Shown here piece after piece: positions 2,842-49,912 of a DNA stretch of 64,000 nucleotides. The position numbers were made by a program, and so were the translations under genes. The number at the start of each line of letters is the position of its first letter. Positions within the stretch are counted from its first letter, which is position 1. A model generated the notes under the pieces. That model was not told the origin of the DNA. It searched no databases and saw nothing but the letters and a program-made list of their open reading frames with translations. Source of the DNA: Opitutaceae bacterium (lineage in GTDB: Bacteria; Verrucomicrobiota; Verrucomicrobiia; Opitutales; Opitutaceae); the NCBI GenBank assembly GCA_027490995.1, contig JAIXWY010000011.1, positions 930,001 to 994,000 on the forward strand, given 5' to 3'.

Positions 2842-3687
2842 ATGGATCCATCGACCGATCGCTTCTGGTTCTGGCTCGCCGGAGCCTGCTACTTCGCCGG
2901 GCTCGCGCTCGGCACGTCTGCGGTGCTGCGCCGTCGGGCACATTCACGCGGCATCATGAATGCAATCGTGGTCGTGGGCTACGTCCTGCACACGTACGCC
3001 CTGTACCTGCGCGGACTTGAGGTGCGTGGGTGTCCGCTCGGCAATCAGTTCGAGATCTTTCAATTCACCGCCTGGTCGGCCACGAGCTTATACCTCGTCG
3101 TAGGCACCACGTTCCGCATCAGCCTGCTCGGCTACTTCACGTCGATGCTGTCGGCCGCCCTGACCCTGCTCTCGCTTTCGATGCCGGCATGGGACGCCGA
3201 ACATCGCATCAACGTCTTCGGTGGCAACGCTTGGATCGAGTTCCACGCCGCGCTCGCCCTTTTTAGCTACGGTGTATTCGGCCTGCTTTCGCTCACCTCC
3301 ATCCTGTTTCTGCTGCGCCACTTTTCGCTCAAGAACAAGCAGCTTGATGGCACCTTCGCGTTCCTTCCCTCGATCGTGGATCTGGATCAGATCGGGCACC
3401 GCCTCTTGATCACCGGCGTGGTACTGCTCGCGACGTCGCTGCTCGTCGGTGCGTCCTGGTGGACGCGCAATCCGGGAGCCGTCAACCCAGTCAAGATCGC
3501 CGTCACAGCCTCGATCTGGATTGCTTACGCGGTCGCTCTGGCGCTGCGCCTGCGGGGCCGTCTCCAGGGCAAGCGGCTGGCCAAGGTGTGCATCGCTCTC
3601 TTTGCGGTCGCCCTGCTGTCGCTCTCGTTGATCACGCCGCGCCGCCCGGTTTCGGGTCCGGCCAGCGTCTCCTCGCACCAGCCGTGA
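2842..3687 (+). CDS. Cytochrome c assembly protein, CcsA/HemX type
   Basis: About 281 residues with roughly eight hydrophobic spans, matching the CcsA/CcmC/HemX family. The segment NVFGGNAWIEFHAALALFSYG is typical of HemX-like members. The start chosen is the ATG giving MDPSTDRFW, just before the first span; the upstream in-frame start adds a polar tail. The stop overlaps the hemA GTG start (GTGA), so the two are translationally coupled. HemX in Bacillus lies beside hemA and affects glutamyl-tRNA reductase levels; CcsA handles heme for cytochrome c. Context favours a HemX-like role. Confidence 0.8.
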   Translation: MDPSTDRFWFWLAGACYFAGLALGTSAVLRRRAHSRGIMNAIVVVGYVLHTYALYLRGLEVRGCPLGNQFEIFQFTAWSATSLYLVVGTTFRISLLGYFTSMLSAALTLLSLSMPAWDAEHRINVFGGNAWIEFHAALALFSYGVFGLLSLTSILFLLRHFSLKNKQLDGTFAFLPSIVDLDQIGHRLLITGVVLLATSLLVGASWWTRNPGAVNPVKIAVTASIWIAYAVALALRLRGRLQGKRLAKVCIALFAVALLSLSLITPRRPVSGPASVSSHQP

Positions 3688-47317: not shown

Positions 47318-48220
47318 ATGGCTGATTCCTTTTCCGTGCTGTTCGCTGACTATCCCTGGCTGAAGCCCGCTCTGGCGGGAGTATTCGGCGCAATCATCGG
47401 CAGCTTCTTGAACGTCGTGATCCTTCGCGTGCCCGCCGATCGCTCGATCGTGAGTCCGGGGTCTCGCTGCGGATGTGGAGCCCCGATTGCTTGGTACGAC
47501 AACGTGCCGATCCTGAGCTGGTTCATCTTACGCGGTCGCGCGCGCTGTTGCGGCCGGACGTATTCGATCCGCTATGCTGCGATTGAGGCACTCACGTCAG
47601 CGCTCTTTGTCGCCTCATGGATGCTGCTGCCACCGATTCAGGCCCTTGCCGGCTGCATCATGATCAGCGGACTCATCTGCGCCAGTTTCATCGACCTCGA
47701 TCACCTGATCATTCCCGACAGCCTTACAATCGGCGGCGCGCTGCTCGGCGTCGCTCTCTCGGTGGCGCTGCCGGCCATCCATGGCTTCAGCAGCGAATTT
47801 TGGATCGCCGACGCCCTTCGTGCCCTCGTGGCTTCGCTCAAGGGCCTCTTGATCGGCTCCGCGGTGGTGCTCTGGATCGCGATCCTCGCTGAGGCGGTGT
47901 TACGCAAGGACGCGATGGGATTCGGAGATGTGAAGCTGGTCGGCGCGATTGGTGCGTTCTGCGGCTGGCAGGGCGCGATGTTCAGCATCTTTGGCGGTGC
48001 CGTCGTCGGGTCCTTATGGGTCGCCCTCGCGTGGCTCTGGCGGCGAGGTGGCGGTGCCCGGATGGTACCGGCGCAGACGGCCGAGGGCGAAGCGACCGAA
48101 CTCGCGCTCGGCGTCCACGTTCCCTTCGGACCGATGCTCGCCGCGGGCGGGGTGATTTATCTGCTGTTCGCGCGGCCCTGGGTGACCGCCTACTTCGAGG
48201 GCATCGTCACTCTTTTCTGA
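47318..48220 (+). CDS. Prepilin peptidase, A24 family
   Basis: 300 residues with about eight spans. N-terminal GSFLNVVILRVP, Cys-rich loop CGCGAPIAWYDNVPILSW and RCCGRTYSIRY, active-site Asp residues in SFIDLDHLIIPD and in DAMGFGDVKLVGAIGAF. It cleaves the leader and N-methylates type IV pilins or type II secretion pseudopilins at the membrane. The usual paired CxxC is altered to CxC plus CC. No pilus genes lie nearby. The 3' end overlaps the LuxR-type gene by 31 bp, convergent. Confidence 0.92.
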   Translation: MADSFSVLFADYPWLKPALAGVFGAIIGSFLNVVILRVPADRSIVSPGSRCGCGAPIAWYDNVPILSWFILRGRARCCGRTYSIRYAAIEALTSALFVASWMLLPPIQALAGCIMISGLICASFIDLDHLIIPDSLTIGGALLGVALSVALPAIHGFSSEFWIADALRALVASLKGLLIGSAVVLWIAILAEAVLRKDAMGFGDVKLVGAIGAFCGWQGAMFSIFGGAVVGSLWVALAWLWRRGGGARMVPAQTAEGEATELALGVHVPFGPMLAAGGVIYLLFARPWVTAYFEGIVTLF

Positions 48221-49221
48221 CCCCGCAAAGACACGCCCGCTGCGGCTGGTTCAGCGACGGCTTGGAACGACGAGGCCTCGAACTCTACCGGCGGGCCCGG
48301 CAGGCATCGCGGCGGCTCGCCTCGCCGCGTACGAAACACGCTGCGGGAACGCAGCGCCTCAATGCCCGGCCTCTCGACGCCCCGCTCGGTGAAACGAACC
48401 AGTCCGCAGCGAATCGCCAGACTCACCAATTGTCCCTTGTGCTGCAGCCGTAGCTTCTGGTGGATGCGCTTGCGGTAAGCGTGCACCGACTGCAACGACA
48501 GCCCCAGAACATCCGCTCCCGTCTGGTCATCGGAGCCGTCGCCCAGCACCGCGAAGACATAGAGTTCAGCGGGGCTCAGCACGCGCTGCACGTGACCATT
48601 GGGGCCTTCACCCCGCAGGATCTCCAAAAACGACTGGCTCCAGTACGCGCCCCCACAGCCAATGCGGCGGATTGCGTCGGCCAGACCCGGAGCACCATCG
48701 GACCGTGAGTCAACCGCACCATGCGCGCCGAGGCTGCGAATGGCGAAGATGACCTGAGGCTCACGGCGGTGCGTCAGCACCAGCAGACGGTCGCACTGCC
48801 TCCGCGCCCGCGCCTCCGCGAGCAAATCGAGCGCGTCGCCGTCAAGCAACGCCTCGGACGTGATCAGGAAATCCGCCGCTCGCGCGGCCAGCGCTCCCCG
48901 CAACGCCACGCGATCGCGGACCTGCTCCACCTCCGCGTGCGGCAGGAAACGCGCCAACAGGCGGAGCACGGAGTCCGCCACGAGGCAGTCATCGATGGCC
49001 ACCAACACGCGGCGGAGGTGGGCCAGTGTGACCACATCACACGGCTGCAGATCGCGCGGCAGCGGGGCGAGCAACTCCGGCGTCGCCGACTCGGCTCCCG
49101 CCGCGACGGAGCGCGGCGACGAAGCGGACGACGGTGAGGAGGAAGGAGCGAGACGCGTTGAAACAGAGGTCCGGGAGGGCACGAGTGGTAAGGGATTCAC
49201 GCACTCGCTAATGCATTGCAT
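48190..49221 (-). CDS. LuxR family regulator with degenerate receiver-like domain
   Basis: About 343 residues from ATG at 49221; an in-frame GTG/ATG-type start six codons earlier is possible. A low-complexity Ser/Ala N-terminus precedes a receiver-like domain (about residues 65-190). In it the phosphoacceptor region reads DFLITSEALLDGDALDLL, with Ser/Thr where Asp is expected. The LuxR-type HTH spans LSPAELYVFAVLGDG to LQHKGQLVSLAIRCGLV. A pseudo-receiver would respond to something other than phosphorylation. It is downstream of, and co-directional with, the small GG-leader peptide genes. Confidence 0.82.
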   Translation of the reverse strand: MQCISECVNPLPLVPSRTSVSTRLAPSSSPSSASSPRSVAAGAESATPELLAPLPRDLQPCDVVTLAHLRRVLVAIDDCLVADSVLRLLARFLPHAEVEQVRDRVALRGALAARAADFLITSEALLDGDALDLLAEARARRQCDRLLVLTHRREPQVIFAIRSLGAHGAVDSRSDGAPGLADAIRRIGCGGAYWSQSFLEILRGEGPNGHVQRVLSPAELYVFAVLGDGSDDQTGADVLGLSLQSVHAYRKRIHQKLRLQHKGQLVSLAIRCGLVRFTERGVERPGIEALRSRSVFRTRRGEPPRCLPGPPVEFEASSFQAVAEPAAAGVSLRGQKRVTMPSK

Positions 49222-49314
49222 TTGCTCAGCAAGCCCCAACCGCCTCGTTTTCGTTTCTTCCCGGTCGACCCGGGAAACCGTGAAAGCGGCTCGTCCCGAT
49301 GTCCCGAAAGCACC

Positions 49315-49464
49315 CTAGAACAGGCTGCGCGCCATCTCCTTCAAGCTCGCCCAGTGTGTGATCAGGAGGTGAGCAAGGATCCAGCCGATGAAGCCGGCGA
49401 TCACATTGGCTAGTTGGACGGGGCCGAAGAATCGGCGGGAGGGGATTGGTTGGTGGTCTTTCAT
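49315..49464 (-). CDS. Small single-span membrane protein (49 residues), unknown
   Basis: A 50-codon ORF, ATG at 49464 and TAG at 49315. Polar N-terminus (MKDHQPIPSRRFFGPV), one hydrophobic span (LANVIAGFIGWILAHLLIT) and an amphipathic tail (HWASLKEMARSLF). No similarity recognised. It lies 71 bp after the second GG-leader peptide gene, beyond a hairpin, and 93 bp before the LuxR gene. Size, charge and position suit an immunity or accessory protein for the peptides. TATACT ends 6 bases before the ATG, so a leaderless transcript from its own promoter is possible. Confidence 0.55.
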   Translation of the reverse strand: MKDHQPIPSRRFFGPVQLANVIAGFIGWILAHLLITHWASLKEMARSLF

Positions 49465-49494
49465 GAGGAAAGTATAGGGGGTGTGGGAACGACT

Positions 49495-49520
49495 GTGGGG
49501 TCGCCAGGCGACGACCCCAC
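49495..49520 (-). terminator. Hairpin between the peptide gene and the 49-residue gene
   Basis: Nine-base perfect arms (GTGGGGTCG / CGACCCCAC) with an 8-base loop, 15 bp after the stop of the 60-residue peptide gene on the minus strand. No T tract, so attenuation or mRNA 3'-end protection is as likely as termination. Confidence 0.5.
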
Positions 49521-49535
49521 AGCGGCGGCGACGTG

Positions 49536-49718
49536 CTACTCCTCCAGCGCGTACGCGAGCGCCTCGAAGAAGGCGATGGTACCCGTGAGGATCAGGCAGT
49601 ACGGAGCACGGCGAATCACAGAGCGCGCGTGCGCTCCGATGAACTGTCCGAGGTCCGTACGGAAGGGCTCACCGCCGCCCCGGCAGGCGGCGAGTTGATC
49701 GATGGAAAGTGAGTTCAT
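49536..49718 (-). CDS. Double-glycine leader peptide A (bacteriocin-like precursor)
   Basis: A 60-residue ORF from the ATG at 49718, with a good Shine-Dalgarno (AAGGAGA) 8 bases upstream; a longer in-frame start adds only seven residues. The leader MNSLSIDQLAACRGG fits the LSxxEL-x-x-x-GG pattern cut by C39 peptidases of ABC exporters. The predicted mature part, about 45 residues, has a cationic middle (AHARSVIRRAPYC) and a hydrophobic helix (LILTGTIAFFEALAYAL). It follows peptide B by 17 bp. Function is inferred from leader and size only. Confidence 0.65.
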   Translation of the reverse strand: MNSLSIDQLAACRGGGEPFRTDLGQFIGAHARSVIRRAPYCLILTGTIAFFEALAYALEE

Positions 49719-49735
49719 GGAATGGTCTCCTTGAG

Positions 49736-49912
49736 TCACACGTTATTCCATCCATCGGCGACCGCCTCCTTGAACTCGCCCCAGTTATCGTAGATGTCTT
49801 TGGCGGCGTGCGTCACCGTTGCGGCGAATACGCCGAGCAAGATGCCGCCCAGCGTCAACGGTCCGCCACCTCCCAGCGTGGCGACCGACTCGGTTTCTGT
49901 CAGGGTCTTCAT
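49736..49912 (-). CDS. Double-glycine leader peptide B (bacteriocin-like precursor)
   Basis: A 58-residue ORF from the ATG at 49912, preceded by GAAAGGA about 10 bases upstream. The leader MKTLTETESVATLGG ends in a run of glycines; the rest has a Gly-rich hydrophobic stretch (LTLGGILLGVFAATVTH) and a polar, Trp-rich tail (YDNWGEFKEAVADGWNNV). This build resembles class IIb/lactobin-type peptides. The frame is open far upstream, but that part has no start-site or protein support. Tandem with peptide A, which begins 17 bp later. Confidence 0.65.
   Translation of the reverse strand: MKTLTETESVATLGGGGPLTLGGILLGVFAATVTHAAKDIYDNWGEFKEAVADGWNNV

What the first reader, a model, noticed from the sequence alone, without database searches (positions are those of the whole stretch)
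49536..49912. Tandem double-glycine-leader peptide genes, candidate two-peptide bacteriocin-like system
Two adjacent minus-strand genes, 17 bp apart, encode 58- and 60-residue peptides. Each has an N-terminal leader of about 15 residues ending in Gly-Gly (VATLGG and LAACRGG) and each has a ribosome-binding site (clear for A, plausible for B). Peptide B has a Gly-rich hydrophobic core and a Trp-containing amphipathic tail; peptide A has a cationic segment and a hydrophobic helix. This is the build of class IIb bacteriocins or GG-secreted signalling peptides. I know of no described example from this lineage. The exporter is not in the window.
Basis: partly seen in the sequence, partly recalled or inferred. 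Interest (0 to 1): 0.78.

Follow-up and report, generated by a model that had tools for sequence, protein, structure and literature searches.

The report
Two-peptide bacteriocin-like locus in Opitutaceae
Some Opitutaceae bacteria carry a conserved trio of tiny genes, two precursors of secreted peptides and a small membrane protein, that looks like a two-part bacterial weapon with its own immunity protein; its action has not been tested.

Summary
In detail: two minus-strand genes 17 bp apart encode 58- and 60-aa peptides with double-glycine leaders. Both recur in 9 of 10 genomes of the genus (own included) at one syntenic site, under purifying selection. It follows B in 16 of 16 genomes compared, behind a hairpin-forming spacer whose sequence varies. 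Outside the genus, A-B-C followed by a C39 peptidase ABC transporter recurs in 7 of 7 genomes that have a GG-type A (three other genera). The window's genome has one detected C39 exporter, on another contig, beside a further GG-leader peptide. Of 9 A sequences scanned, 2 relatives pass NCBI's class IIb bacteriocin cut-off; 4 of 9 B sequences weakly resemble lactococcin G-alpha; the window's own peptides match no family. Best reading: a C39-exported, two-peptide, membrane-active bacteriocin with a tiny immunity protein. Export is well supported; killing and immunity are inferred. Against: anionic cores, stable vertical inheritance, family matches that lean on the leader, one relative with a broken exporter. 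Main rival: signalling or biofilm peptides. New variant of a known kind.

The parts
49736..49912 (-). Gene A: GG-leader peptide, 58 aa (15-aa leader MKTLTETESVATLGG; mature GGPLTLGGILLGVFAATVTHAAKDIYDNWGEFKEAVADGWNNV: hydrophobic stretch plus amphipathic W..FK tail)
   Evidence: In 9 of 10 genus genomes and 7 genomes of three other genera; dN/dS 0.18-0.40 among three genomes; AlphaFold helices 21-42 and 44-56 at low confidence, pLDDT 64.4
49536..49718 (-). Gene B: GG-leader peptide, 60 aa (15-aa leader MNSLSIDQLAACRGG; mature part with D.GQF.GA containing GxxxG)
   Evidence: Same 9 of 10 genus genomes, right after A; GxxxG somewhere in the mature part of 14 of 16, at the D.G...G site in 13 of 16; dN/dS 0.18-0.24; AlphaFold helices 23-37 and 40-59 at low confidence, pLDDT 62.7
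49315..49464 (-). Gene C: 49-aa, net basic protein with one hydrophobic stretch and no GG leader; candidate immunity protein
   Evidence: Small ORF of this kind after B in 16 of 16 genomes, found by reading frames; 37-54 aa, net charge +1 to +4, best 19-residue hydropathy 1.14-2.49 (no transmembrane predictor was run); dN/dS 0.15 for one pair, G000-G004
49492..49523 (-). 14-bp stem-loop in the B-C spacer; candidate partial terminator or 3'-end stabiliser that keeps A and B in excess over C
   Evidence: B-C spacer folds into a stem-loop in 16 of 16 genomes; z -2.0 or lower in 15 of 16, -0.86 in G001, -4.25 here
49727..49732 (-). Shine-Dalgarno-like AAGGAG before B
   Evidence: sequence

Best explanation
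A-B-C is a compact two-peptide, bacteriocin-like unit. A and B are made as precursors; the C39 domain of the genome's one detected peptidase-containing ABC transporter cuts each after Gly-Gly and exports it (inferred from leaders, genome content and gene linkage in relatives). The two mature peptides probably associate, with the GxxxG face of B as one contact, and damage the inner membrane of competing bacteria (inferred). C, a tiny membrane protein encoded just downstream, stays in the producer's membrane and protects it (inferred). The hairpin between B and C keeps the peptides in excess over C (inferred).
For: A and B co-occur, A then B, in 9 of 10 genus genomes at one syntenic site. The own genome has one detected C39 match, in an ORF with ABC membrane and ATPase domains, and a GG peptide ends 50 bp before it. 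In 7 of 7 non-genus genomes with a GG-type A, A-B-C then C39 lie on one strand. C39-type leader features: hydrophobic residue at -12 in 16 of 16 A and 16 of 16 B, Glu at -8 in 16 of 16 A (where several GGs were possible the script chose the one closest to the consensus, which favours these counts). C39 Cys/His/Asp motif in 15 of 15 loci checked. NCBIfam, 9 of 16 A and 9 of 16 B scanned: A of G276 and G495 pass TIGR03949 class IIb (22.9 and 24.9 vs 21.5 bits); B of G024, G276, G420, G005 best-match lactococcin G-alpha at E 2e-4 to 0.05, A of G024 and G420 match G-beta at E 0.02 and 4e-4, all four and two below cut-off, never crosswise. C resembles in size and single hydrophobic stretch CbnZ, the 42-aa immunity protein of carnobacteriocin XY (PMC8538875 section 17). 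Most microcins are neutral or anionic (PMC10233263 passage).
Against: No activity, expression or mass-spectrometry data. Window A and B match no family; seven mature parts alone match none (mature A of G495, the best scorer, was not tried alone), so the matches lean on the leader; no solved structure matches. Net anionic cores, unlike most class IIb bacteriocins (recalled). B is only weakly hydrophobic in most relatives (peak 0.69-1.67). One fixed, vertically inherited locus is unusual for bacteriocins (recalled; Cdz-like systems are often horizontally acquired, PMC5380434). G003 keeps A-B-C while its C39 gene is cut to a short remnant; G002's C39 frame is only 451 aa. G000, G003 and G004 have lysA, not an HlyD adaptor, before D, and only weak generic HlyD-like hits elsewhere. 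C39 occurs in 26 of 57 genomes, many without A. C's role rests on position, size and hydropathy only.
Confidence: 0.6

Rival explanations
1. A and B are GG-secreted communal or signalling peptides, such as biofilm or aggregation factors, not toxins; C is a small membrane partner or receptor.
For: Purifying selection and a fixed chromosomal site in the genus suit a stable social trait. EbfG1-4 of Synechococcus elongatus are GG-motif proteins whose efficient secretion needs a C39 transporter and which enable biofilms (PMC4997328, abstract and passages). A LuxR-type regulator gene follows C in 9 of 9 genus loci.
Against: Two peptides plus a small membrane protein is the layout of a toxin-immunity unit; some relatives match class IIb models. 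The LuxR gene gave no hit in the C39 clusters of the other genera.
Confidence: 0.27
2. A contact-dependent form of the best explanation, of the Cdz kind: A and B stay on the producer's surface and kill on contact (overlaps with the best explanation, so the odds do not add up to 1).
For: Cdz of Caulobacter crescentus is a Gram-negative two-protein bacteriocin with type I secretion and a small membrane immunity protein (PMC5380434, abstract and passages).
Against: The extended GxxxGxxxG zipper listed among Cdz features is absent from the window's A and B and from 30 of 32 A and B sequences; only B of G495 and G447 have it.
Confidence: 0.2
3. Decaying or cryptic locus: once exported, now relics in this clade because exporter or adaptor is incomplete.
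For: No HlyD gene before D and C39 in G000, G003 and G004; C39 remnant in G003.
Against: A, B and C are intact with low dN/dS in exactly this clade; the C39 exporter of G000 is a 724-aa ORF, 88% identical to that of G004.
Confidence: 0.08

Closest known systems
Class IIb (two-peptide) bacteriocins: lactococcin G / enterocin 1071 (NF038034, NF038035), lactobin A / cerein 7B family (TIGR03949)
   Same: Two adjacent GG-leader peptides, GxxxG in B, C39 ABC exporter in the genome, small membrane-protein gene after the peptides; some relatives match these profiles
   Different: Verrucomicrobiota; anionic cores; window peptides match none of the models; exporter on another contig in this genome
Carnobacteriocin XY with immunity protein CbnZ
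   Same: Immunity protein of 42 aa with one transmembrane domain (PMC8538875 section 17), like C in size and hydropathy
   Different: No sequence comparison made; C not tested for immunity
Cdz system of Caulobacter crescentus (CdzC, CdzD, CdzI)
   Same: Gram-negative two-protein bacteriocin with type I export and a small membrane immunity protein (PMC5380434, passages)
   Different: CdzC and CdzD are 86 and 84 aa with extended glycine zippers and CdzI has three predicted TM domains; window A and B lack the zipper and C has one hydrophobic stretch
Class II microcins (microcin V type)
   Same: GG leader, C39 ABC transporter plus HlyD-type adaptor in many relatives here, small inner-membrane immunity protein, mostly neutral or anionic (PMC10233263, passages)
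   Different: Known examples are from Enterobacteriaceae (abstract start seen); single-peptide nature is recalled; here a pair
EbfG1-4 and PteB of Synechococcus elongatus
   Same: Small GG-motif proteins exported with a C39 transporter (PMC4997328, passages)
   Different: Biofilm function; the passages read mention no small membrane immunity protein

Membership tests
Class IIb two-peptide bacteriocin | Two adjacent precursor genes with GG leaders | tested here: met
   16 of 16 A/B pairs; the script placed the cut of B in G001 after AG and in G002 after QG, though a GG follows one residue later in both
Class IIb two-peptide bacteriocin | GxxxG or GxxxG-like motif in the mature peptides | tested here: met
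   B 14 of 16 (window GQFIG); A 9 of 16 (window GILLG), and a small-xxx-small motif in 16 of 16 A, which is weak because such motifs are common
Class IIb two-peptide bacteriocin | Export by a C39 peptidase ABC transporter | tested here: inconclusive
   Gene present in own genome and linked in relatives; export itself not shown
Class IIb two-peptide bacteriocin | Score over a curated family cut-off | tested here: not met
   Window A and B: none. Among relatives, A of G276 and of G495 pass TIGR03949; Pfam PF10439 hits stay below cut-off
Class IIb two-peptide bacteriocin | Dedicated membrane immunity protein | tested here: inconclusive
   C gene in the right place in 16 of 16, hydrophobic stretch by hydropathy; function untested
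Class IIb two-peptide bacteriocin | Both peptides needed together to kill | not testable with these tools
   needs a bioassay
Cdz-like contact-dependent bacteriocin | Extended glycine zipper GxxxGxxxG | tested here: not met
   Absent from window A and B; present in 2 of 16 B and 0 of 16 A
Class II microcin | HlyD-type adaptor encoded with the C39 exporter | tested here: not met
   In the own genome lysA stands there instead. HlyD-like frames precede D in 7 of 10 genus genomes by reading, Pfam-checked only for G005; HlyD-like hits also in G024 and G276 clusters

The most novel reading that the evidence does not exclude
C is a leaderless mimic of peptide A that stays in the producer's membrane and blocks the A-B complex from within: an immunity protein derived from, or convergent on, one half of the toxin it neutralises. 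A and C share a hydrophobic stretch followed by W..hK (16 of 16 each; profile comparison P 2.4e-4, probability 44%), and in the three other genera A and C tails match each other within a genome (WPDFKK in both for G495; permutation fraction 0.008), but not within the window's genus (0.85).
Probability: 0.25. Interest if true: 0.75.

Novelty: new variant of a known kind. Interest (0 to 1): 0.6.

Why it matters
If true it would extend two-peptide bacteriocins to the Verrucomicrobiota, in a clade whose eight named relatives here are all metagenome-assembled genomes, and would give a three-gene system in which two-peptide killing, immunity by a very small membrane protein and dosage control by a spacer hairpin can all be tested with synthetic peptides and cloned genes. 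The recurring hairpin and the A-like tail of C are specific features that an experiment can support or refute.

Tried and rejected
Rfam over the whole window at gathering threshold: no family, so the B-C hairpin is not a curated RNA. Pfam and NCBIfam for C of the window: nothing significant. PDB profile searches with mature A and B: best E 0.71 and 0.58. AlphaFold of A and B gave low-confidence helices (pLDDT 64 and 63), so no fold search was run. LuxR gene as part of the system: set aside, since it gave no hit in the C39 clusters of other genera. A second A-B copy in G004 (contigs C219 and C394) is probably a variant contig end, not a second locus; the C219 copy (G004b) was dropped. The within-genome match of A and C tails: fraction 1e-4 over all 16 and 0.004 over 10 representatives, but stratified it vanishes inside the genus (0.85 of 120 permutations; 0.78 of 720) and holds only in the other genera (0.008 of 120; 0.003 of 720). 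Absence of A and B in G009 is inconclusive: its LuxR neighbour lies at the very end of a contig. The G225 hit is a 103-aa membrane-type protein without GG leader before a lysS-like frame; it is left out of the A counts. A scan for small GG ORFs near C39 genes showed by its filter clear candidates only in G023 and G002; the others were found by reading frames; six loci of more distant genomes (L082-L086, L095) showed none that I could pick out, and were not read further. Literature: ten searches listed no title or abstract start that reports such a system in Verrucomicrobiota; most listed papers were not opened. Two that hold the terms were looked into by passages: PMC3482391 (C39-related toxin domains, not this) and PMC8636102 (one antiSMASH 'bacteriocin' cluster in a co-assembly, no detail). 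Only open-licence PMC papers are covered.

Full report
What is there. On the minus strand, gene A (49736-49912, 58 aa) and gene B (49536-49718, 60 aa) lie 17 bp apart. Each begins with a 15-residue leader ending in Gly-Gly. A third small gene, C (49315-49464, 49 aa), follows 71 bp after B; it has no GG leader and one hydrophobic stretch. Upstream and divergent is a POT/MFS-type peptide transporter gene; after C come a LuxR-type regulator gene (GerE domain over cut-off), a prepilin peptidase and aroE (POT, prepilin peptidase, aroE and lysA are recognised from sequence, not from a family search).

It is real and conserved. The window lies in G000, contig 14. Among 57 genomes, A and B were found in the same 9 of 10 genus genomes, the own one included. 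Of these nine loci, LuxR follows A-B-C in 9 of 9, the POT gene precedes in 8 of 9 (the G001 contig ends about 600 bp past A), and prepilin peptidase and aroE follow in 6 of 9, the other three contigs or fetched stretches being short there. So the unit is inherited at one site. The tenth genome, G009, has a LuxR match (65% identity) at the very end of a contig, so its lack of A and B is inconclusive. Substitutions among G000, G003 and G004 are coding-like: dN/dS 0.18-0.40 (A, three pairs), 0.18-0.24 (B, three pairs), 0.15 (C, one pair).

The exporter. The own genome (94.67% complete) has one Peptidase_C39 match (E 9.8e-25), on contig 2. It belongs to an ORF of 724 aa from the likely start, with ABC membrane and ATPase domains and the Cys/His/Asp motif. 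A further GG-leader peptide, D, ends 50 bp before it. C39 is present in 9 of 10 genus genomes; the exception is G003, whose C39 gene is cut to a short 5' remnant (or is misassembled) while D, A, B and C are intact. G002's C39 frame is only 451 aa long. D-type peptides stand before C39, or its remnant, in 10 of 10 genus genomes. An HlyD-like frame precedes D in 7 of 10 (read from frames; Pfam HlyD_3 over cut-off for G005). In G000, G003 and G004 lysA stands there, and only weak HlyD-like hits were found elsewhere (E 2e-8 to 7e-4); the best one in G000 looks MacA-like by eye. C39 as such is common: 26 of 57 genomes have it, many without A.

Linkage elsewhere. A profile search of 252 family genomes gave 17 with a match at E <= 0.01: 9 genus genomes, 7 genomes of three other genera (G024, G446, G447, G450; G276, G420; G495) and G225, which is not a GG peptide. 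In 7 of 7 non-genus genomes, A is followed on the same strand by a B with GG leader, a C-like small protein and then C39; in G420 other sequence intervenes and the contig ends inside C39. In samples of the order (372 genomes) and phylum (387 genomes), matches outside the family were four order genomes with weak partial hits (E 5e-4 to 9e-3) and none at E <= 0.001 in the phylum sample; a loose first look with capped candidates precedes scoring, so absence is not strict.

Anatomy. Leaders have a hydrophobic residue at -12 in 16 of 16 A and 16 of 16 B, and Glu at -8 in 16 of 16 A (the script chose the GG nearest the consensus where there was a choice). Mature A is a hydrophobic stretch followed by an amphipathic tail with W..FK in 16 of 16; mature B has D.G...G in 13 of 16. 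Net charges are -3 to 0 (A), -5 to 0 (B) and +1 to +4 (C). Best 19-residue hydropathy is 1.57-2.21 (A), 0.69-1.67 (B) and 1.14-2.49 (C), below 1.6 in 4 of 16 C. C is 37-54 aa. AlphaFold gives helices for A and B at low confidence; C was not modelled. The B-C spacer (45-72 nt) folds into a stem-loop in 16 of 16 genomes, with different stem sequences between clades; z is -2.0 or lower in 15 of 16 and -0.86 in G001; in 11 of 16 none of 200 shuffles folds as well. A U-run after the stem is not consistent, so a full intrinsic terminator is unlikely in most.

Comparison with known kinds. The window's A and B match no Pfam or NCBIfam model at a meaningful level. In NCBIfam, 9 of 16 A and 9 of 16 B were scanned: A of G276 and G495 exceed the TIGR03949 cut-off for class IIb lactobin A/cerein 7B bacteriocins; B of G024, G276, G420 and G005 weakly match lactococcin G-alpha, and A of G024 and G420 weakly match G-beta, never crosswise. 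Seven mature parts alone gave no match, and the G-beta match of G420 covers little but the leader, so these matches lean on the leader region. Pfam Bacteriocin_IIc hits of relatives stay below cut-off. CbnZ, a 42-aa single-TM immunity protein, shows that a protein of C's size can be enough (PMC8538875 section 17 read in full; PMC6957408 passages). The nearest Gram-negative case I found is Cdz (PMC5380434, abstract and passages), whose extended glycine zipper the window peptides lack. Class II microcins share the export type and the charge (PMC10233263 passages; PMC7616364 passages mention CdzCD).

Judgement. Shown: coding status, conservation, order, physical link to C39 in relatives, one detected exporter in the genome, recurring spacer hairpin. 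Inferred: cleavage and export, joint action, membrane killing, immunity by C, dosage control. I put export by C39 at about 0.9, joint action of the two peptides at about 0.7 and bacteriocin function with C as immunity at about 0.6. It is not filed as a member of class IIb, because the curated score test was not met for the window's own peptides and activity is untested; it is likely to work like one.

Noticed in passing
G000:C2, L042:8864-9061: A further GG-leader peptide D (65 aa) ends 50 bp before the only detected C39 exporter; D-type peptides, divergent in sequence, stand there in 10 of 10 genus genomes.
   Followed up: partly
L154 (G003:C7), about 3099-3233: C39 exporter gene reduced to a short 5' remnant, or misassembled, in one genome that keeps A, B, C and D.
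   Followed up: partly
L112 (G276:C11): Cluster with HlyD, several further GG-leader peptides, a Rce1-like/CPBP membrane protein (22.3 vs cut-off 22.4 bits) and a second short C39 frame before A-B-C-C39; possibly a multi-peptide locus with Abi-type immunity.
   Followed up: partly
L113 (G225:C2:199055-199144): 103-aa membrane-type protein before a lysS-like frame, without GG leader, whose C-terminal tail GDIVAHWPDFKRAVVAGWNSV resembles peptide A's tail (E 2e-7 to 1e-6).
   Followed up: partly
window 48190-49239 (-): LuxR-type regulator with a degenerate receiver-like part follows A-B-C in 9 of 9 genus loci; possible regulator, no hit in the C39 clusters of other genera.
   Followed up: partly
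L042:11473-14910 (-): 1145-aa ORF of unknown kind converges on the C39 exporter gene in G000.
   Followed up: no
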